A stretch of 64,000 nucleotides of DNA, taken from positions 1,804,674-1,868,673 of the forward strand of contig NC_021487.1 in assembly GCF_000427095.1 (NCBI RefSeq). Direction: 5' to 3'. The number at the start of each line of letters is the position of its first letter. Position 1 is the stretch's first letter. The position numbers were made by a program, and so were the translations under genes. The notes under the pieces were generated by a model. It made no database searches. It was not told the DNA's origin and was given only the letters and a program-made list of their open reading frames with translations. The DNA comes from Chthonomonas calidirosea T49 (GTDB lineage Bacteria > Armatimonadota > Chthonomonadetes > Chthonomonadales > Chthonomonadaceae). Below, piece after piece: positions 24,985-35,129 of the stretch.

Positions 24985-25880
24985 TGAAACCACAACAGGC
25001 ATCGTCTCCAGTCTCCTCTTCGTTAGACAATCTGTTTGTTCTAAAACAGGTAAGCTATCGCTACAACCCAGAAACTCCGGCGCTCTCCAACATCTCGGTA
25101 GAGCTGCGCGCGGGGGAAAGCGTGGCGCTATTAGGCGCTAATGGCTGTGGGAAGTCTACCCTCCTAAAGCTGCTCGGAGGGCTGCTTTTTGCACAAGAAG
25201 GGGAAGTGCTTGCTTTTGGCGAGCCGCTAACCGAAGCTTTTCTCAACGTGGAGCGCAACGCCCATCGGTTTCGACGGCGCGTGGGCTTCGTGTTTCAAAA
25301 TGCCGATGCCCAGTTGTTCTCCGCCACCGTGCGCGAGGAGCTAGCTTTCGGACCGCTTCATCTGGGGCTGCCTTACGAGGAGGTCCTGCAGCGCGTGCAC
25401 GATGTGGCTCGCCTTGTTCAAGTGGAGATGCTGCTAGAACGCCCTCCTTTCCTCCTCTCCCACGGAGAAAAGCGACGTGTTGCTCTTGGGTGTGTTTTGG
25501 CCACAAACCCCGATGTGCTCCTACTCGACGAGCCGACCACCGGCCTCGATCCGCGCTCCCAAGTGCAGTTTTCGGAGCTGTTGCAGGCGCTTCATAGGGC
25601 TGGAAAAACCTTGATCATTAGCACCCACGATCTTCACCTCGTGCCGGAGCTTGCCCAGCGTGCCCTCATTATGGCGGAAGACCACACGCTTGCTGCCGAT
25701 ATTCCCGCCGCCCAGCTATTCGATCACCTCGATCTGCTTTACCGCGTCAACCTCATTCATGAACATATGCACCGGCATGGCTCTATCGTTCACTCGCATC
25801 CACACTATCATTCCGGCGAACATGCCCATTCGCATCTACCACCACTCGAAACGCCTCCTCAAACGCAGGAAGAGAACTAA
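24984..25880 (+). CDS. cbiO: CbiO-type ECF transporter ATPase with His-rich tail
   Basis: This ATPase powers the fused CbiMNQ protein. It has Walker A GANGCGKST near residue 50, a Q-loop in VGFVFQNADAQLFSATV, the signature LSHGEKRRVALG, Walker B VLLLDEPTTGLDP and the switch His in ISTHDLHL. The last 45 residues hold about a dozen His in HxH patterns, likely a metal store or chaperone tail. The ATG at 24984 overlaps the previous stop after TAGGAGGG. Its stop overlaps that of the convergent kdpD-like gene at 25877-25880, with no terminator between. Confidence 0.93.
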   Translation: MKPQQASSPVSSSLDNLFVLKQVSYRYNPETPALSNISVELRAGESVALLGANGCGKSTLLKLLGGLLFAQEGEVLAFGEPLTEAFLNVERNAHRFRRRVGFVFQNADAQLFSATVREELAFGPLHLGLPYEEVLQRVHDVARLVQVEMLLERPPFLLSHGEKRRVALGCVLATNPDVLLLDEPTTGLDPRSQVQFSELLQALHRAGKTLIISTHDLHLVPELAQRALIMAEDHTLAADIPAAQLFDHLDLLYRVNLIHEHMHRHGSIVHSHPHYHSGEHAHSHLPPLETPPQTQEEN

Positions 25881-27025
25881 AGTGCCTCGTCTTCGGGTGG
25901 AGCGACAATAAGGATGTCTATGTTGCGCAACTCTTGGGTAAGCCGATGAATAATAGAGCCCTTGAGAAATTCTTGAAAACGAGAACGGCTTGAATGGCCG
26001 ATCACAATCTGTGTAATCTGATGCTCTTTAGCATAGGAGATCAGCTGATCGGCCACTTCACCGTGAAGGGTAACAACAGGGATCTTGAGTTGGTCAGCGA
26101 GCGCTAAAACGCTGCGAAACTGTTCTTGCTGTTCGGGCGTGAGGGGCCGATTCTCCACGTAGACCGCCACGATATCCGCGTCGAGCCTTTGGGCGATGCG
26201 CCATCCGCGCCGTAGGAGTCGCATCGATGCCAACTCAGGGGCAATACACACCATAATGCGGTCTTTCGTTGCCCAGGTCTTCTTGATGCGCTGCTCTTTT
26301 CGATAATCGCTGAGGTCACGGTCTACCTCTTGAGCCACTTCCCGAAGGGCTATCTCACGAAGTGCATTGAGGTTGCCTTCTCGAAACCAGTTGTTGAGAG
26401 CGGATTGGATCTTGTCGGAAGGATATATCTCTCCGCGCTCTAATCGGTGAATCAGCGCGCGCGGGGTGATGTCTACCATCACGATCTCGGCCTCATGTAG
26501 CAGGCTATCGGGAACGGTCTCGCGCACACGAATACCGGTGATGTCGTAAACCGTGTCGTTGAGACTTTCCAAATGCTGAACGTTCAGCGTGGTCAGCACA
26601 CTGATGCCATGGTCACGTAGATACTCTACATCTTGCCAGCGCTTCGGCCGCTCAGAGCCGGGCACGTTGGTATGGGCTAGCTCATCTACAACCACCCATT
26701 GAGGCTTGCGGCGCAGAATGGCTTCCGTATCCATCTCTTCAAAAACCCTACCGCGATACTCTATCTTCTTTCGCGGAATGATCTCGAGATCGCCTATCTG
26801 TGCCTCTGTTCCCTTGCGACCGTGCGTCTCTACATAGCCGATCACCACATCCTGCCCACGCTGCTTGCGCCGATTCGCTTCGCTAAGCATCTCATAGGTC
26901 TTGCCAACTCCTGCAGCAAAACCGAGAAAGATCTTCAGGCGCCCTCGTTGCTGTGGCTCTTCCGCTTTAATACGGGCAAGCAATGCATCGGGATCGGGGC
27001 GTTCCTCCTGAGCATCCGACACCAT
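25877..27025 (-). CDS. kdpD: Short KdpD: sensor and universal-stress domains without a histidine kinase
   Basis: The 382 residues match only the N-terminal cytoplasmic half of KdpD. The KdpD domain has Walker A GFAAGVGKTYEML near residue 35 and Walker B VVVDELAHTNVPGSERPKRW near 110, followed by a Usp domain at about 250-375 with GHSSRSRF. The membrane helices and HisKA/HATPase of full KdpD are absent. Short KdpD proteins are known in cyanobacteria and Deinococcus. It is the last gene of the kdp operon and may pass a K+ or c-di-AMP signal to the separate kinase encoded two genes upstream. A GGAAG site precedes the ATG. Confidence 0.9.
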   Translation of the reverse strand: MVSDAQEERPDPDALLARIKAEEPQQRGRLKIFLGFAAGVGKTYEMLSEANRRKQRGQDVVIGYVETHGRKGTEAQIGDLEIIPRKKIEYRGRVFEEMDTEAILRRKPQWVVVDELAHTNVPGSERPKRWQDVEYLRDHGISVLTTLNVQHLESLNDTVYDITGIRVRETVPDSLLHEAEIVMVDITPRALIHRLERGEIYPSDKIQSALNNWFREGNLNALREIALREVAQEVDRDLSDYRKEQRIKKTWATKDRIMVCIAPELASMRLLRRGWRIAQRLDADIVAVYVENRPLTPEQQEQFRSVLALADQLKIPVVTLHGEVADQLISYAKEHQITQIVIGHSSRSRFQEFLKGSIIHRLTQELRNIDILIVAPPEDEAL

Positions 27026-27039
27026 GAGGCTTCCTTCTC

Positions 27040-27777
27040 CTAAACAGTGGTCAACACGGCATCAATCCAGCGACGCATGCCGGTTGTCAGCTCTTCAACC
27101 TGCAACAGGTTGTTGGGAGGAAGTTCGGCATGCTGCCAAAGATAGTTGGCTAACGCCTCTTCACAGAGGGCCTGCCAAAAACGATTACCGCCGGCAAACT
27201 GCTCCCTGTCGGCATAAGCTTTTACAAGCTCTATGATATGGGGCAAGAGAACAACCTTACACTGGCTCTTCTCCCCTGAAGGGCTGGTAACGGTGAACGT
27301 CTGTTCAAACTTACCCCCGGTATAAAGAGCGGTATCCGGTTGAAACTCGATGTGGTAGCCGTTGACCGTGGTAAACCCGTAGGTCAGCCCCTGCGATTCA
27401 GCCGGAGCTGCCTCAGTCTTATTCAAGGCGGCCTCCACCGCACCGCGAAGGGTTTTTGCCGTGAACGGTTTTCTCAAAAAGTCGGTCGCCCCGAGCTTCA
27501 TAGCAGAAACAGCAAGGTCTATCGTTCCAAAAGCAGTAATCATGATGATCTTTGCATCACTATTGCGCTCCTTTAGCTCTTTCAGAACGTATAGGCCCTC
27601 CACGTCGGGCATTCTTTGGTCTAACAAAACGAGGTCCCATGCGTCTCCATTGCCGAACTTAGCGATGCCTTCAAGGCCGTCATAGGCCACTTCAACCTCA
27701 TGGCCGGCCGCTTTCAACGTAAGCTGAAGCATACGGCAAATATTGGGTTCATCATCTATTACAAGAATGCGGGCCAT
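27040..27777 (-). CDS. Response regulator with an unrecognised non-HTH output domain
   Basis: Residues 1-125 are a CheY-like receiver with the acidic pair IDDEP, phosphorylation Asp in LVLLDQRMPDVEG, Thr in MITAFG and Lys in FLRKPF. The remaining 120 residues (NGYHIEFQPDTALYTGG and on) do not look like the winged helix of KdpE; they resemble a small mixed fold ending in a helical part. The ATG at 27777 follows AAGGAG by eight bases and lies three bases after the kinase stop. It is the likely partner of that kinase. How it changes kdp expression without a DNA-binding domain is open. Confidence 0.85.
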   Translation of the reverse strand: MARILVIDDEPNICRMLQLTLKAAGHEVEVAYDGLEGIAKFGNGDAWDLVLLDQRMPDVEGLYVLKELKERNSDAKIIMITAFGTIDLAVSAMKLGATDFLRKPFTAKTLRGAVEAALNKTEAAPAESQGLTYGFTTVNGYHIEFQPDTALYTGGKFEQTFTVTSPSGEKSQCKVVLLPHIIELVKAYADREQFAGGNRFWQALCEEALANYLWQHAELPPNNLLQVEELTTGMRRWIDAVLTTV

Positions 27778-27779
27778 TT

Positions 27780-29615
27780 TCAAAGCTCCTTAACAGGTAG
27801 ATAGAAGGTAAAAGTGCTGCCTTTTCCTGGAGTGCTCTCCACGGTTATCTGACCTCCATGGGCCTTCACAATGGTCTGTGCGATAGAAAGCCCTAAACCG
27901 GCGCCGCTGCGCGCTACGCCCGGCACCTGTACAAACCGCTCGAAGATGCGCGGAAGATACTCTGGCGGAATGCCAATGCCCGTATCCTGCACCGAAAAGA
28001 AGACCTTCTCATCCTTTGGATAGACCTTTATATGAATTTGTCCTCCCTCGGGGGTAAAACGAACGGCGTTATTGAGCAGATTGAGGAGCACGCGGTTGAT
28101 CTGGGCAGGATCGGCTCGAAGCGGAGGCAATAGGGGAAACACTTCGACACGTAGGTGAAGATTCTTTGCTTTTGTCTGAGGCTCTATGGCCTCAACGGCG
28201 TTTTGAACCAGCTGTTCAGCCGATACGATCTCGAATCGCGGTGGAGTTGCTCCCGTTTCAAGACGGGTGATGTCGAGGAGATCGCGCATCATGCGATCGA
28301 GGCGCTGCAAATCCTCTTTCTGACATCGAACAACCTCTTGTTGTTCGGGAGTTAACGGGCCGAGAGTGCCCTCTTGAAGGAGATCCACCGAGAGCTGCAA
28401 CGAGGTCACTGGCGTGCGCAACTCATGAGAGGCAATGCCGATGAATTCCGTTTTCAGTCGGTCGAGTTGGCGTAGGTGCGTGATATCCTCCAAGACGGCG
28501 ACGGCACCAAGCAGCTCTCCCCCCTCCGCCTTCATAGGGGTTGTGCGCAAACGGTAGGTACGTGGAATGCCAGCATATTCTAGGTCCACCATGCCGGCCT
28601 CATCTTCAGCCACCGAGGCGCTTTGTTGATGAATGGCTTTATGTAGCGCTGTAACAATGCTCTTATCGCGGATGGTTTCATCAATCGGCTTACCGATAAG
28701 GTTTGCCTCTGGACCAAAAAGCCCCTCAGCTGCGCGATTCACATGTACCAGTCTGCCCTCGGCGTCGGCCACTATCACCGGGTCGTAAAGACTTTCCAAC
28801 GCCGCTTCCGACATGCGCTCGGCTCGCTGATAACGCTCCTCTTCAACGCGCCGTGCCTCTTGAAGCCTCTCGGCCATCCGGTTAAAGGCACGTGCCAATG
28901 CGCCGATCTCATCGGATCGGTGAACCTCGATGCGCTGGTTGAAATGCCCTGCTCCTATCTCTTCGGCCTGACGCACCAAAGAACGCAACGGAGCGAGAGT
29001 TGAATTGACCATTCTGTAGGAGAAGAAAAGCGCCAAACCAAGCGCGAGAACCGAGGCCGTAATGCCCAGCCAAAAAGCACGTCGCGCCTCGGTTCTTGCG
29101 CGTTTATCCGCCTTTACAATGGCTTGTTGATTCAGATCGAGCACATCCTGAGCGCGCTGTTTGAGGCGCAAAAAAGCCGGCTCGAGCACATGAAAGTAGT
29201 ACGCACGAGCCTGCTCGGGAGGCATAGGAGGGTTTGCGTAGAGCAGCCGCTCTATCGCTTTCTGATACTTTGCGAATTGGCGCTGGATGTCATCGGATAG
29301 CTGCTGCTCTCCCGGCTCCGTGATATTATGGGCCTCGACATCGGCCGCTTGGGCAAAAAGCGGCCGAAAGAACTGGTACTGCTTGCGCGCTTTCTCCACC
29401 TGCCCAGCCAGGTAGAAGGTGGCCGCGCTGTCCTGACGCTCCAAAAACTCCTTCATGTTCTCCGCGGCCACCACGCTAACGTAGTTGTTCTTCAAGATTC
29501 GGTCTACGGAGGTGCCTAAGTGGCGCACCTGCAGAATCCCCCCTATGATCACCCCCATCAGAATAAAGATGAGGATGAGATAGCCAATAAGGAACTGGGT
29601 GCGCACATTGTACAT
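27780..29615 (-). CDS. Membrane histidine kinase with HAMP and PAS domains
   Basis: The roughly 611-residue kinase has a first membrane helix (FLIGYLILIFILMGVIIGG), a helical outside sensor of about 145 residues, a second helix, HAMP, a PAS domain (ALESLYDPVIVADAEGRL), HisKA with H box ASHELRTPVTSLQLSVDLL, and HATPase with NLLNNAVRFTPEGG and GTGIG-type boxes. The ATG at 29615 is eight bases after the kdpC stop. Its place between kdpC and the response regulator suggests it takes over the kinase role missing from the short KdpD. Its signal is unknown. Confidence 0.93.
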   Translation of the reverse strand: MYNVRTQFLIGYLILIFILMGVIIGGILQVRHLGTSVDRILKNNYVSVVAAENMKEFLERQDSAATFYLAGQVEKARKQYQFFRPLFAQAADVEAHNITEPGEQQLSDDIQRQFAKYQKAIERLLYANPPMPPEQARAYYFHVLEPAFLRLKQRAQDVLDLNQQAIVKADKRARTEARRAFWLGITASVLALGLALFFSYRMVNSTLAPLRSLVRQAEEIGAGHFNQRIEVHRSDEIGALARAFNRMAERLQEARRVEEERYQRAERMSEAALESLYDPVIVADAEGRLVHVNRAAEGLFGPEANLIGKPIDETIRDKSIVTALHKAIHQQSASVAEDEAGMVDLEYAGIPRTYRLRTTPMKAEGGELLGAVAVLEDITHLRQLDRLKTEFIGIASHELRTPVTSLQLSVDLLQEGTLGPLTPEQQEVVRCQKEDLQRLDRMMRDLLDITRLETGATPPRFEIVSAEQLVQNAVEAIEPQTKAKNLHLRVEVFPLLPPLRADPAQINRVLLNLLNNAVRFTPEGGQIHIKVYPKDEKVFFSVQDTGIGIPPEYLPRIFERFVQVPGVARSGAGLGLSIAQTIVKAHGGQITVESTPGKGSTFTFYLPVKEL

Positions 29616-29622
29616 TTTGCTT

Positions 29623-30252
29623 CTATTGTCTCTTTGTGACAGGGTAGAGCCGATCGAGCGCAAGATTCAGGCGTAACACATTGACGCGCGGCTCGCCGAG
29701 AATGCCGAACTGCCGAGGTTGCGTATAGTCGTGAATAAGCCGCCTCACACGGCTAACCTCCACACCCCGTGCCTTGGCCACACGATCCGCCTGTAAAAGA
29801 GCGTTCTCAACGCTGATGTCTGGATCGAGTCCGCTTCCGGAACGGGTAACGGCGTCAGTGGGCAGCGGCATTGTGCTCGGCAGGTTGTTCTCTTGACGAT
29901 AGGCGGTGGCTAAGTCTTTCATACCATCGAAGTTGTCGGTGGCCTTCGGGCCGTGATGCACGCCATTGATCAGTTTATCCGTCGTAGGGGCCAGATTGGT
30001 TCCTCCGGAACTGGTGGGGTCGTAGCCGTTGCCTGCCGCCGAAGGACGTGGATGAAAGTAGATCGGGAGCGTGAAGCTTTGTCCGATCAGCTCCGAGCCA
30101 ACCACTCTGCCATTTCGCACAATGAGGCTTCCATGAGCTTGAAACGGAAAGAGGATGTTAGCCACCAGAGTGACAAGGCCAGGGAAAACAAACCCCAGCA
30201 AGATCGTCCAAGCCAAAACGCTAACCAGAGCAGGGCGTAATTGAGTTCTCAT
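29623..30252 (-). CDS. kdpC: K+-transporting ATPase subunit C
   Basis: KdpC is the single-span subunit that stabilises the KdpFABC complex. It shows the N-terminal helix (VLAWTILLGFVFPGLVTLVANILF), then GSELIGQSF, the FHPRPSAAGNGYDPTSSGGTNLAPT block, and the C-terminal VNVLRLNLALDRL. The ATG at 30252 follows GGAG at nine bases; an in-frame ATG 18 bases upstream has no ribosome site. The length is about 209 residues. Confidence 0.95.
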   Translation of the reverse strand: MRTQLRPALVSVLAWTILLGFVFPGLVTLVANILFPFQAHGSLIVRNGRVVGSELIGQSFTLPIYFHPRPSAAGNGYDPTSSGGTNLAPTTDKLINGVHHGPKATDNFDGMKDLATAYRQENNLPSTMPLPTDAVTRSGSGLDPDISVENALLQADRVAKARGVEVSRVRRLIHDYTQPRQFGILGEPRVNVLRLNLALDRLYPVTKRQ

Positions 30253-30276
30253 AGAGAGGTTCTCCTTCATCTATTT

Positions 30277-32382
30277 TTAGGCGAGATGTAACAGCACCAA
30301 AAGGCGGTCGAGCAGCCAAATGCCTGGGAAGGGGGCGATGATGCCGCCCAACCCGTAGATCAGCAGGTTTCTTCTTAAGATGGCCGCTGCACCTAACGGC
30401 CGATAGGCGATCCCCCTAAGGGCCAACGGGATCAGCGCGATGATGATCAACGCATTGAAAATAACCGCAGCCAAGATGGCCGATTCGGGATTGGTTAGCT
30501 TCATGATGTTGAGAGCATTCAGCGCGGGATAGATAGGTGCGAACATCGCTGGCAAGATGGCAAAATACTTGGCCACATCGTTGGCGATGCTAAACGTGGT
30601 AAGCGCCCCTCGCGTCATGAGCAGCTGTTTGCCGATCTCTACCACCTCAATGAGTTTCGTGGGGTTGCTATCGAGGTCTACCATGTTGCCCGCCTCTTTG
30701 GCTGCTTGGGTACCACTGTTCATGGCCAACCCCACATCGGCCTGAGCGAGCGCCGGAGCATCGTTTGTGCCATCCCCTGTCATGGCCACCAACTTACCCG
30801 CCGCCTGCTCTTGGCGGATCAGGGCTAGCTTCATTTCGGGCGTGGCCTCGGCAAGAAAGTCGTCTACGCCAGCCTCTTCGGCGATCGTTTTAGCCGTCAA
30901 TGGGTTATCGCCAGTGATCATAACGGTGCGGATGCCCATGGAGCGGAGCTGCTCAAAGCGCTCGCGGATTCCCCCCTTTACCACATCTTTGAGATAGATC
31001 ACGCCGAGAATACGCTCGTTTTTGGCCACGACCAGAGGCGTACCTCCCTTCTGAGAGATATTGGTGACGATGGGCTCCAGTTCACAAGGAATCTCACCGC
31101 CCAAGGAGAGCACATGGCGCTTAATGGCCTCTGCCGCCCCTTTGCGAATCTGTTGACCATCCATATCAATACCGCTCATGCGTGTTTGGGCAGAAAAGGG
31201 AACGAACTCCGCATGATGAGAGGCCAACTCTCTACCGCGAAGACCATACTTCTCTTTAGCAAGCACCACAATACTGCGACCTTCTGGGGTCTCATCGGCC
31301 AAACTGGAAAGCTGTGCGGCATCCACTAGCTCCTCCATACTCACATTGGGAAGCGGAATAAACTCCACCGCCTGGCGGTTGCCTAACGTGATGGTGCCCG
31401 TTTTATCCAACAAAATGGTGTCAATATCCCCCGCGGCCTCTACCGCCTTGCCCGACTTGGCCAGTACGTTGTGCTGCATCACCCTATCCATACCGGCGAT
31501 CCCAATAGCCGAAAGTAGCCCGCCGATGGTGGTTGGGATGAGGCAGACCAGGAGCGCCACCAACACCACGACGGAGGGCGCTTGGCCCGACTGCGTGGCG
31601 CGCACGGCAAAATCGGCGAAAGGCGGCAGAGTGACACAAACCAGTAGGAAGATAATGGTAAGCCCCGATAACAGGATGGAGAGAGCGATCTCGTTGGGGG
31701 TTTTCTGACGTTGGGCGCCCTCCACCAGAGCGATCATACGATCTATAAAGGTCTCTCCTGGGTTGGCGGTAATGCGGATGACGATGCGATCGGAAAGCAC
31801 TTTGGTTCCCCCTGTTACCGCGCTTCGATCGCCACCGGCCTCCCGAATAACAGGGGCCGACTCGCCTGTTATCACCGACTCATCCACGCTGGCGATTCCT
31901 TCGATAACCTCCCCATCACCGGGGATAATATCCCCTGCCTCACAGACCACCACATCTCCTTTGCGCAGTTGTGTGGCCGGCACCCGCTCCTCTTTTCCGT
32001 TGACAAGCTTGCGCGCGAGGGTATCCGTTTTGGTTTTACGAAGGCTCTCGGCTTGCGCCTTACCACGTCCTTCTGCCATCGCCTCAGCGAAGTTTGCAAA
32101 GAGCACTGTAAACCAAAGCCAAAGCGCCACCTGGCCCGTAAAAAGCGGTTGGCCTGTATGGGTAATCAGCTGCTTTACCCAGAAATAGGATGTGAGAAGA
32201 CTGCCAACCCACACCACAAACATCACGGGGTTGCGGGCAACGAGGCGTGGATGGAGCTTGCGAAAGGCATCGCGCACGGCATTCTTCACCAAGGTAGGCT
32301 CAAACAGAGAGAGGGTTTGTCTTCCTGAGTGAGACGGCCTACCGGCAGTTGGATTCTTAGGGTTTTTCTGTACGGTTCGCAC
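30277..32382 (-). CDS. kdpB: K+-transporting ATPase subunit B (P-type ATPase)
   Basis: KdpB is the catalytic P-type ATPase of the high-affinity potassium pump. It carries the TGES loop (VITGESAPV), the phosphorylation motif DKTGTIT near residue 325, [21 protein letters not shown], and the membrane helices, in 701 residues. The start is GTG at 32382, preceded by AAGGGAG. It lies between kdpA and kdpC in the standard order. Confidence 0.97.
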
Positions 32383-32393
32383 TGTTCGCTCCC

Positions 32394-34187
32394 TTAAAAG
32401 AGTTTTCCGATGTGTAGTTGGAACTGCTCGGCAAAAGGCCCAAGCGCTAACGCTGGGAAGAAGGTAAGCGCACCGATGATGATGGTTGTGCCCACGAGCA
32501 GAAATACGAAGGTGCTGGAGTCGGTGGGGAAGGTGCCGGCCGTGGCTGGTACCAGCTTCTTACGTGCCAAGCTGCCAGCGATGGCGATGGAAGGGATCAG
32601 CATGAAGAAGCGCCCCACCCACATGGCCAGCCCCAGGAGCAGATTGTAGATGGGGGTATTGGCATTTAGGCCGGCGAAGGCCGAACCGTTGTTATTGGTC
32701 GTGGAGGTAAACGCATAAAGAATTTCGGAAAAGCCATGGGGGCCGGGATTGTTCACGTTATTATAGGTGGCGCCGAGATAGGTTGTACTGCCGTTGACTC
32801 GGTTCCAGGAGCTGTGGGCGGAGAGTGGCAGATCGGAAGCGATGGCGGTAAAGGTGAGCACGGAGGCAGCATGGATCAGCATCACCAATACCGCCATGGT
32901 GATCTCATACTTTTCAATCTTTTTGCCAAGATATTCCGGTGTCCGTCCCACCATAAGCCCGGCAATGAATACCGCAATAACGGCAATAATAAGCATACCA
33001 GTTAGTCCTGCTCCCACCCCTCCAAAGATCACCTCACCGGTCATCATGTTCACAAGCGGTACCAGCCCTCCAATGGGAGTAAAAGAGTCGTGCATGGCGT
33101 TCACAGCCCCACAAGAGGTGTCGGTAGTGACGGTTGCAAAAAGGGCAGTGGCTGCGATGCCAAATCGCATCTCTTTCCCCTCCATGTTTCCACCCGGCTG
33201 AAGCGAGGAGGGTTTAAGGTCGAGTCTAAGAGGCCCGCTCTGCAGTAGGGCGATGCCCCTTTGTTCCTGCTGATAGCAGACAAAAACCCCCATGAAAAAC
33301 ATGGCGCTCATGGCTGCGAAGAGCGCCCACCCCTGCCGGGTATTGCCCACCATCTTGCCGAAGGTGTAGGTGAGAGCTGCAGGAATCAAGAAGATGGCGA
33401 GCATCTCCAAAAGGTTAGTGAGCGGAGTTGGGTTTTCGTAGGGATGAGCCGAATTGGCATTAAAGAAGCCCCCTCCGTTTGTACCCAACTCCTTAATCGC
33501 CTCTTGAGAGGCCACCGGCCCTTGGGGAATGAGCTGCGTGCTTCCCTCTACTGTGGCCACTTTGGTGTAGGGCGAGAAGTTCTGTGGAACCCCTTGCCAT
33601 ACGAGCAGCAGCGCCAAAATGAAGGTGAGTGGCAGAAGAATATAGAGAGTCGCCCGCGTGGTGTCTACCCAAAAGTTGCCGATTTCATGAACGGTACGAC
33701 GAGCAAACCCGCGAATGAAGGCAACAGCCACGGCGATACCAGCAGCGGCCGACATCCAGTTATGCATGGCCAAAGCCACCATGTTGGAGAAGTAGCTAAC
33801 CGTGCTTTCAGGGGTATAAGATTGCCAGTTAGTATTGGTAGTGAAAGACACAGCTGTGTTAAAGGCCAAATCGGGTGTCATCTGATCGGCCCCAAACTTC
33901 TGAGGGTTCCAGGGTAAATGCCCCTGTAGCCTCAAGAGAATGTAGGTGAGAAGCAACCCTACCACACTGAAGAGCACGAAGGCAAGGGCGTAGGTGGTCC
34001 AGGGCATCTCCACCTCCTCTTCAATACCGAAAAGCCGATAAAGCCCCACCTCGAGCGGGCGGAGAATCGGATGCAGCAGCGTTCTCTCCCCTTGGAAAAC
34101 ACGGGCCATATAGCTGCCGAGCGGTTTGGTGAATACTAGGATCAGCAGAAAGAAGAGGAGTATCTGTGCGACTCCATTGGGTGTCAT
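32394..34187 (-). CDS. kdpA: K+-transporting ATPase subunit A
   Basis: KdpA is the channel-like subunit that binds K+ in a selectivity filter related to K+ channels. Filter loops such as [30 protein letters not shown] and [18 protein letters not shown] are visible among about ten membrane helices in 597 residues. The ATG follows an AGGAGG that overlaps the kdpF stop. Confidence 0.96.
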
Positions 34188-34201: not shown

Positions 34202-34288
34202 CTAGAAACGCTCTGGATAGAAGAGCGCATAGAGTAGGTACACAAACAGACAGCAGATAATAAATAGGATCAACGCGTGTTCCATCAT
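34202..34288 (-). CDS. kdpF: KdpF-like small membrane subunit
   Basis: A 28-residue ORF directly before kdpA encodes one membrane helix (LILFIICCLFVYLLYALFY) ending in PERF. Size, position and the YLxYALxxPERF ending match KdpF, the small lipid-like subunit of the KdpFABC pump. Two ATG codons open it after AGGGAGG. Its start overlaps the stop of another tiny ORF. Confidence 0.85.
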   Translation of the reverse strand: MMEHALILFIICCLFVYLLYALFYPERF

Positions 34289-34386
34289 CGCTGGCCTCCC
34301 TGCAGAAGACGATTGCAACCGTAAAGAAAGCCTACCGTGAGCGCCGTCATTACCAGTATAATAAAAATAGCAAATCCGTCCGACAT
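34285..34386 (-). CDS. 33-residue membrane peptide at the head of the kdp operon
   Basis: A tiny ORF with a strong site (AAGGAGAG) encodes MSDGFAIFIILVMTALTVGF followed by LYGCNRLLQGGQR: one membrane helix and a short polar tail. Its stop overlaps the kdpF start by four bases (ATGA), so the two should be coupled. Small ORFs of this general form before kdpF or kdpA occur in other phyla as far as I recall, but have no assigned role. It could be an accessory pump peptide or a control of kdpF translation. Confidence 0.7.
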   Translation of the reverse strand: MSDGFAIFIILVMTALTVGFLYGCNRLLQGGQR

Positions 34387-34422: not shown

Positions 34423-34487
34423 AAAAAGCAAAAAGGCCGGAAGTGACGGTAAGCTCTCCCATGAAAGAGCTTCCGTAACCTCCGGCC
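34423..34487 (-). terminator. Terminator-like hairpin in the kdp leader
   Basis: On the minus strand GGCCGGA (34487-34481) pairs with TCCGGCC (34441-34435), with inner ACGG/CCGT and AAGCTCT/AGAGCTT stems, and is followed by T5-GC-T5. It ends only 37 bases before the first kdp ORF, leaving little room for a separate promoter. It is therefore either the end of the mpsC-like transcript or an attenuator for kdp. Confidence 0.8.
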
Positions 34488-34560
34488 TCCTTCCCGACAA
34501 AGGCAGAATCAGCAGCCTCCTTCGGAACGGCAACCGAGCACGATGACTTATTATTAAGGT

Positions 34561-35100: not shown

Positions 35101-35129
35101 ATTTTACCACACGTTGCACCAGATGTCAA
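35101..35129 (-). promoter_or_regulatory. Consensus promoter of the mpsC-like gene (and possibly kdp)
   Basis: On the minus strand TTGACA (35129-35124) and TAAAAT (35106-35101) are 17 bases apart. The predicted start is near 35094. No comparable promoter is visible between here and the kdp genes, so it may serve both. Confidence 0.8.

What the first reader, a model, noticed from the sequence alone, without database searches (positions are those of the whole stretch)
25877..29615. Rearranged Kdp signalling: separate kinase, non-HTH response regulator and short KdpD
The kdp operon ends with three regulators. The kinase is a HAMP/PAS protein unrelated to KdpD outside the kinase core. The receiver protein has a 120-residue output part that does not look like the KdpE winged helix. 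KdpD is only its N-terminal and Usp halves. A regulator with no DNA-binding fold suggests control at RNA or protein level, which could fit the leader hairpin before kdp.
Basis: partly seen in the sequence, partly recalled or inferred. Interest (0 to 1): 0.75.

Follow-up and report, generated by a model that had tools for sequence, protein, structure and literature searches.

The report
Potassium two-component system, new output domain
A bacterium's potassium-pump operon carries a sensor kinase, a response regulator whose output part matches no known domain, and a free-standing KdpD serine-kinase half, and the operon is preceded by a previously unlisted attenuator-like RNA, which together suggest that potassium uptake is controlled after transcription starts rather than by the usual KdpE DNA-binding switch.

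Summary
At 25877-29615 (minus strand) lie a HAMP/PAS histidine kinase, a receiver protein, and a KdpD made only of its N-terminal and Usp domains. The RR's 118-residue output domain matches no Pfam, NCBIfam or PDB sequence family; AlphaFold gives a confident model (pLDDT 92) that is not a winged helix; the nearest fold is DUF1488 (Z 6.2, inconclusive). The domain recurs in 50 of 291 genomes of the phylum and in Acidobacteriota, in HK-RR cassettes beside Kdp or a KimA-like permease. The short KdpD is a known kind: a stand-alone serine kinase acting on KdpB.

Its 5' arm is shared with a conserved, covarying upstream RNA absent from Rfam, found before kdp, mpsC, kimA-like, HK-RR and Na+/H+ exchanger genes. 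Strong RNA hits fall in 21 genomes, 20 with this RR; the exception's contig ends inside the kinase gene. I infer RR-dependent antitermination (ANTAR-like in logic, unrelated in parts) at about 0.4. The main rival is a riboswitch independent of the RR: many RR-positive genomes lack the RNA and the domain is acidic.

The parts
27780..29615 (-). Sensor histidine kinase: TM, four-helix-bundle-like sensor, TM, HAMP, PAS, HisKA, HATPase_c (TM segments read by eye)
   Evidence: Pfam; start codon read from sequence
27040..27777 (-). Response regulator: receiver (phospho-acceptor Asp53 counted from the ATG) plus unassigned output domain
   Evidence: Pfam Response_reg E 2e-27; receiver catalytic residues invariant in 12 homologues
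27043..27396 (-). RR output domain: T-x-N-G-[FY]-x-I ... FxVxxPxG ... FW...LxxYLW...PP; no known family
   Evidence: A3, 53 rows; no family; AF2 pLDDT 92.1, pTM 0.86; nearest fold 2gpi/DUF1488 Z 6.2
25877..27025 (-). Short KdpD: N-terminal KdpD domain (Walker A GVGKT, Walker B DE) plus Usp
   Evidence: Pfam, NCBIfam; motif alignment to E. coli KdpD
29623..34187 (-). kdpA, kdpB, kdpC (KdpB keeps the TGES serine that KdpD phosphorylates in E. coli)
   Evidence: Pfam/NCBIfam; sequence
34202..34288 (-). kdpF-like small ORF (ends LYALFYPERF)
   Evidence: read from sequence
34285..34386 (-). 33-residue membrane microprotein ahead of kdpF; similar ORF seen at this place in relatives
   Evidence: read from sequences
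34479..34543 (-). Leader RNA copy 1 (before kdp): P1-P2-P3 stem-loop
   Evidence: CM R2 47.1 bits; covariation
34423..34492 (-). Terminator hairpin with T run; its 5' arm includes the 3' strand of P1
   Evidence: fold z -7.8; stem of 15 overlapping P1
35038..35096 (-). Leader RNA copy 2 (before mpsC)
   Evidence: CM R2 41.4 bits
34988..35047 (-). Terminator hairpin of the mpsC leader, overlapping P1
34561..34959 (-). mpsC (PF10057; DUF2294 is its older name, recalled), first gene of the presumed operon
   Evidence: Pfam E 7e-35
35101..35129 (-). Promoter-like TTGACA-17-TAAAAT with TG before -10, just upstream of the mpsC leader
   Evidence: consensus scan, 11 of 12; 6 promoter-like sites found against 5.8 expected in the stretch, so only this strong match is weighed

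Best explanation
This is a potassium-homeostasis module with split duties. (a) A transmembrane HK senses an unknown signal and phosphorylates the RR (inferred from anatomy). (b) The RR's output domain is a conserved, unassigned alpha+beta domain, not a winged helix. In this clade it most likely acts after transcription initiation by favouring the P1-P2-P3 fold of the leader RNA found before kdp, mpsC, kimA-like and HK-RR genes. P1 uses the same strand as the terminator's 5' arm, so the two folds exclude each other and RR action would let RNA polymerase read through (inferred). (c) The free KdpD-Usp protein acts separately as a serine kinase that phosphorylates the KdpB TGES serine to shut the pump when K+ is plentiful (shown elsewhere for E. 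coli and D. geothermalis proteins; here only the motifs are shown).
For: Output domain: conserved in 50 of 291 genomes of the phylum and 4 of 396 sampled from the phylum of L003; no known family; confident non-wHTH model. Cassette: of 46 distinct loci, HK scored as adjacent in 38 (a lower bound, overlapping ORFs were not counted), short KdpD adjacent in 34, KdpB in 19, KimA-like in 16. RNA: 77.2% of cells paired and covariation 0.42 against 0.21 in shuffles on the unfitted seed alignment; 80.6% against at most 43.4% when slid, and 0.49 against 0.20, on the model-fitted alignment. Of 45 hits, 36 have a terminator whose 5' arm overlaps P1, against 95 of 900 shuffled controls; of the 23 hits outside the 22 seeds, 19 do. 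Co-occurrence: strong hits (E<=1e-4) in 21 of 291 genomes, 20 with the RR; in the exception, G056, the contig ends inside the HK gene. G030 and G034 have RNA and RR but no kdpB hit, so the RNA is not tied to kdp alone. G045 keeps kdp and short KdpD without HK-RR and has no RNA. G053 keeps only a leader beside a KdpD remnant. Short KdpD: Walker A, Walker B D-E and the R190 equivalent kept.
Against: 30 of 50 RR+ genomes have no strong RNA hit, among them all 24 in family f15, and five Acidobacteriota-type loci have none, so the RR does not need this RNA everywhere. G046 has a well-paired kdp leader (27.9 bits) but no RR was found in its 87%-complete assembly and none lies in the operon. The domain is acidic (window -5; mean -5.7 in the members outside f15 and Acidobacteriota, -10.4 in f15), which does not favour RNA binding, although the E. 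coli KdpE DNA-binding part is only +1. Co-occurrence may be mere physical linkage, since the RNA usually heads the operon that encodes HK-RR. No binding was tested.
Confidence: 0.4

Rival explanations
1. The leader RNA is an autonomous riboswitch (ligand unknown: an ion, c-di-AMP or another metabolite), and the RR works elsewhere. RNA and RR co-occur because they lie in the same operon.
For: Conserved nucleotides, overlapping terminator, and Na+/K+ target genes are what a riboswitch would show. A c-di-AMP riboswitch before kdpFABC is known (PMC6488665, start of abstract seen). The genome has a diadenylate cyclase domain. G046 has the RNA without a detected RR; many RR+ genomes lack the RNA.
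Against: No Rfam match at gathering, and only chance-like matches at relaxed cut-off. Single stem-loop without junction or obvious pseudoknot. Strong hits are almost confined to RR+ genomes: 20 of 21.
Confidence: 0.32
2. The output domain is a new DNA-binding domain and the RR is an ordinary transcription activator of kdp/kim/mpsC promoters.
For: Most RRs bind DNA (recalled); D. radiodurans has a split KdpD and an RR that binds the kdp promoter (PMC5716572, passages read). It would explain the f15 and Acidobacteriota cassettes that lack the RNA.
Against: No DNA-binding profile matched (two of 53 members have a sub-threshold RHH_5 hit, best E 0.007); acidic domain; only one column is basic in over 70% of 53 members (R238 counted from window position 27783).
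Confidence: 0.15
3. The RR acts by protein contact, for example on the short KdpD serine kinase or on the transporter.
For: RR is adjacent to short KdpD in 34 of 46 loci; cassettes occur with different transporters.
Against: Some cassettes have no adjacent KdpD (L002, L134, L144, L147). No partner has been tested.
Confidence: 0.13

Closest known systems
KdpD/KdpE two-component system (E. coli)
   Same: HK and RR encoded with kdpFABC; K+ pump as target
   Different: HK is a HAMP/PAS protein without KdpD TM/GAF; RR has no winged helix; KdpD half is a separate protein
Stand-alone KdpD/Usp serine kinase (D. geothermalis; KdpD-N of D. radiodurans)
   Same: Same two domains, Walker A/B kept, linked to KdpB with TGES
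   Different: W39 position is Tyr here; Usp lacks the S. aureus c-di-AMP motif; partner HK/RR differ
ANTAR two-component antitermination (EutV/EutW)
   Same: Logic proposed here: a signal-driven protein favours an antiterminator that excludes an overlapping terminator
   Different: Output domain is not ANTAR; RNA is one stem-loop, not two hairpins; binding unproved
DUF1488 (2gpi, Shew_3726)
   Same: Similar predicted fold: 84 residues aligned to a 91-residue chain, Z 6.2, rmsd 3.5
   Different: No sequence-profile support; DUF1488 are small proteins of unknown function, this is an RR output domain
c-di-AMP riboswitch before kdpFABC (B. thuringiensis)
   Same: cis RNA controlling kdp transcription
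   Different: Different RNA; no Rfam match; ligand, if any, unknown

Membership tests
KdpE (OmpR/PhoB-type RR) | C-terminal Trans_reg_C winged helix | tested here: not met
   No PF00486 match in the RR; model is beta5-alpha-alpha-beta-alpha. The genome's six PF00486 hits lie elsewhere
Full-length KdpD | TM/GAF and HisKA/HATPase_c on the KdpD chain | tested here: not met
   382-aa protein with KdpD and Usp only
Stand-alone KdpD serine kinase | Walker A and Walker B D109/E110 | tested here: met
   GVGKT and VDEL aligned to E. coli KdpD fetched from NC_000913
Stand-alone KdpD serine kinase | Adenine-contact pair W39/R190 | tested here: inconclusive
   R190 kept, W39 is Tyr
Stand-alone KdpD serine kinase | KdpB substrate serine in TGES | tested here: met
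   [11 protein letters not shown] in window and E. coli KdpB
Stand-alone KdpD serine kinase | Kinase activity on KdpB | not testable with these tools
   needs purified proteins
c-di-AMP-binding KdpD Usp | (A/G/C)XSXSX2N(Y/F) motif (PMC8214093) | tested here: not met
   window reads C-I-A-P-E-L-A-S at the place; compared by eye
ANTAR RR | ANTAR domain | tested here: not met
   no Pfam match of any kind in the window's output domain
ANTAR RR | Two-hairpin target RNA | tested here: not met
   one stem-loop (P1-P2-P3); overlap with a terminator is met
ANTAR RR | Phosphorylation-dependent RNA binding and antitermination | not testable with these tools
   needs bench work
DUF1488 | Profile similarity | tested here: inconclusive
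   hhalign score 13.2; 7 of 150 column shuffles and 14 of 100 block shuffles reach it, and the reversed alignment scores higher
DUF1488 | Fold with left-handed crossover | tested here: inconclusive
   VIA Z 6.2 to 2gpi, next row 4.2; handedness not checked
Rfam 15 riboswitch families | match at gathering score | tested here: not met
   0 matches in the window; relaxed scan gives only matches far below gathering scores, mostly miRNA

The most novel reading that the evidence does not exclude
A second kind of two-component antitermination, independent of ANTAR: an HK-RR pair whose RR carries a DUF1488-like output domain recognises a new leader-RNA class and by read-through controls a Na+/K+ transport regulon (kdp, kimA-like, mpsC, a Na+/H+ exchanger), while a split-off KdpD serine kinase shuts the pump.
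Probability: 0.37. Interest if true: 0.85.

Novelty: new variant of a known kind. Interest (0 to 1): 0.66.

Why it matters
Response regulators that control RNA are known to me chiefly through ANTAR (recalled). A new output domain paired with a new attenuator RNA would add a second solution and give a clear test. Even if the RR does not act on it, the RNA is a covarying leader class before K+ and Na+ transport genes that has no match in Rfam 15, and the output domain is an unlisted family spanning two phyla. The cassettes also separate the serine-kinase half of KdpD from its histidine kinase and, in some genomes without a detected kdpB, from the pump itself.

Tried and rejected
DUF1488 homology: fold similarity only; profile comparison not above shuffles. 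Foldseek against PDB and BFVD: no match at E<=0.001; absence from these lists is not proof of a new fold. PHROG hits weak and short. Rfam at relaxed cut-off: chance-like matches.

Searching f15 and Acidobacteriota cassettes for the RNA with filters off: best 15.3 bits, E 0.23, not accepted. Upstream terminators in those lineages: none convincing; reading upstream sequences of 11 f15 kinases by eye gave no shared element.

I first took the G046 leader as decayed; counting its pairs did not support that, so it stands as a counter-example. RNA hits in G238, G148, G153, G196 and G220 and one in G008 were judged false or weak: the two that were tested (L254 and L252) have no overlapping terminator; the other four were judged only by eye.

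Full report
THE GENES. The minus strand reads mpsC - small ORF - kdpF - kdpA - kdpB - kdpC - HK - RR - short KdpD. Pfam and NCBIfam give KdpA, KdpB, KdpC and (Pfam) MpsC clearly. The HK carries HAMP, PAS, HisKA and HATPase_c with a weak 4HB_MCP match in front; it has no KdpD or GAF match. The short protein has only PF02702 and Usp. The RR is a receiver followed by about 118 residues that no Pfam model matches up to E 10.

THE OUTPUT DOMAIN. The search for related loci gave eight loci (L002-L009, of 80 kept) whose match runs through the C-terminal part and which I carried on; a ninth, L029, aligned to residue 218 but its genome has no match to the domain profile. The eight are one Abditibacteriaceae and seven Acidobacteriota-type records (Acidobacteria, Pyrinomonadaceae, Vicinamibacterales, Blastocatellia). 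A 12-row profile found the domain in 50 of 291 genomes of the window's phylum and in 4 of 396 genomes drawn from the phylum of L003. The own genome has one copy. The 53-row alignment A3 has invariant N, G and W and near-invariant T, V, F, L, W and P. None of the 53 members gives a convincing Pfam, NCBIfam or PHROG match; a profile search of PDB sequences gives nothing below E 0.011. The AlphaFold model is confident (pLDDT 92.1, pTM 0.86). Foldseek finds nothing at E<=0.001 in PDB or BFVD. VIA-align puts DUF1488 (2gpi) first with Z 6.2, 84 aligned, rmsd 3.5; the next row is 4.2. The tool warns that Z under 8 may be a common arrangement, and hhalign against 26 DUF1488 members is not above shuffles. 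DUF1488 has an unusual fold with a left-handed crossover and was classed as a new SCOP fold (PMC2954204, passages read). I therefore file the domain under no family.

THE CASSETTE. In 46 distinct loci (48 examined, two dropped as repeats of the same stretch) the RR has the HK scored as adjacent in 38, short KdpD adjacent in 34, KdpB in the locus in 19, a KimA-like permease in 16 and MpsC in 14; 13 have KimA-like without KdpB, and 14 have neither in the stretch held. The HK count is a lower bound because overlapping ORFs were not counted. 'KimA-like' rests on similarity to one locus protein that I recognised from memory; Pfam calls the two tested AA_permease_2. Four Blastocatellia or Pyrinomonadaceae loci have two full RR copies in tandem (L004, L008, L009, L159). 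KdpB was found in 73 and the KdpD domain in 87 of 291 genomes. Eleven of 50 RR+ genomes have no KdpB hit; that list contains G016, where kdpA nevertheless lies beside the RNA at a contig end, so fragmented assemblies are undercounted.

THE SHORT KdpD. Silberberg et al. 2024 (PMC11018627; abstract and sections 7 and 8 read) show that KdpD's N-terminal domain is an atypical serine kinase that phosphorylates KdpB S162. They report that some species carry this kinase and the HK on separate chains, and that the KdpD/Usp protein of D. geothermalis is stimulated by c-di-AMP. The window protein keeps Walker A, the Walker B D-E pair and R190; W39 is Tyr (E. coli sequence fetched). KdpB keeps TGES. The Usp lacks the S. 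aureus c-di-AMP motif as given in PMC8214093 (passages read), although the genome has a diadenylate cyclase domain. In family f15 the second Walker B acid is kept in only some members (for example D-D in L133, L139, L145, L150-L152 and D-P in L141), so those copies may not be KdpB kinases. D. radiodurans has a comparable split KdpD, with an RR that binds the kdp promoter (PMC5716572, passages read).

THE LEADER RNA. The hairpin at 34423-34487 folds at -38.2 kcal/mol, z -7.8, and ends in a T run. In relatives a similar terminator before kdpA and mpsC follows a conserved stretch. I aligned 22 such stretches and drew a structure by eye. P1 is GGUUG-C paired with G-AGGCC with one G-A mismatch; P2 follows, then an internal loop with conserved A and G, then P3 (column conservation). 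On the unfitted alignment 77.2% of cells pair (25.8-45.9% when slid) and the covariation score is 0.42 against 0.21 in shuffles; because I drew the structure from these sequences, this leans in its favour. Model R1 then found 35 matches in 68 sources, including 13 or so outside the seeds. On the 35-row fitted alignment the score is 0.49 against 0.20.

Downstream genes of matches include kdpA, a second kdpA, mpsC, KimA-like, HK-RR and a Na+/H+ exchanger. Of 45 R2 matches (46, L121 dropped as the same stretch as L002), 36 have a terminator whose 5' arm overlaps the 3' strand of P1, against 95 of 900 shuffled downstream controls. The seeds were chosen partly by their terminators; among the 23 non-seed matches, 19 have one. 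P1 and the terminator therefore compete for the same strand, which is the layout of an attenuator. Rfam has no such family. I saw no mention of kdp or Armatimonadota in three papers on new bacterial RNAs or riboswitches searched by term (PMC8632094, PMC11109978 and PMC7266159; the last has 'potassium' once, in potassium fluoride), and none is evident in the listings.

DOES THE RR ACT ON THE RNA? Over 291 genomes, R2 has strong matches (E<=1e-4) in 21; 20 also have the RR. The exception, G056, is 64% complete and its contig ends inside the HK gene just upstream of where the RR would lie (L202). At E<=0.01 it is 21 of 24, the further exceptions being G053 and G238. G053 is a leader standing before a fragment of KdpD, a relic; G238 has no terminator overlap. 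At E<=0.05 it is 21 of 29.

Against the link: 30 of 50 RR+ genomes have no strong match, among them all 24 f15 genomes; outside f15 the RR+ genomes without a strong match are G023, G041, G047, G052, G058 and G209, some of them on broken contigs. Acidobacteriota-type loci show none with filters off. G046 has a well-paired kdp leader, mpsC, kdp and short KdpD but no RR was found. G045 has kdp and short KdpD, no RR and no RNA. The domain is acidic. Linkage in one operon could by itself create much of the association, and genomes related by descent are not independent, so the Fisher values are not used.

JUDGEMENT. I commit to RR-dependent antitermination in this clade as the single most likely mechanism, at about 0.4, because this RNA is the conserved cis element I found before the cassette's operons in this clade and the RR lacks any known DNA-binding fold. 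It works like ANTAR systems (PMC3369931, passages read) but fails the ANTAR membership tests. A riboswitch independent of the RR is nearly as likely.

Noticed in passing
window 34285-34386 (-): A 33-residue single-TM ORF sits between the leader and kdpF; similar ORFs of about 27-30 residues with C-x-[RK]-L near the end occur at the same place in L122, L123, L128, L135, L138 and L148 (read by eye).
   Followed up: partly
L204:10627-12402, L210:2332-4089, L004:900-2630, L250 near 7203: A second, divergent KdpA (about 50% identical to the window KdpA) lies after kdpC or alone; the L250 copy has its own leader RNA.
   Followed up: partly
L133, L136, L137, L139, L141, L145, L146, L149-L153, L155, L157: Short KdpD in cassettes without local kdp; the second Walker B acid is often Asp and once Pro, suggesting another substrate or loss of kinase activity.
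   Followed up: partly
L160:8720-9840: Two short ORFs (167 and 218 aa) carry the output domain without a Pfam receiver match.
   Followed up: no
L006:10717-12923: Two overlapping ORFs each match KdpD, the first with a degenerate Walker B (VDGLAYD): tandem short KdpDs or a frameshift.
   Followed up: no
L142:3073-3135: Leader RNA before a Na+/H+ exchanger gene (PF00999), widening the likely regulon beyond potassium uptake.
   Followed up: yes
L253:805-1134: A leader RNA is followed by a short ORF fusing two KdpD fragments, apparently the remnant of a deleted kdp operon.
   Followed up: yes
window 25877-27025 (-), NCBIfam NF038185: The family is named 'KdpD-like non-kinase', yet PMC11018627 shows serine-kinase activity for a KdpD/Usp protein of this architecture; the name may mislead.
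   Followed up: no
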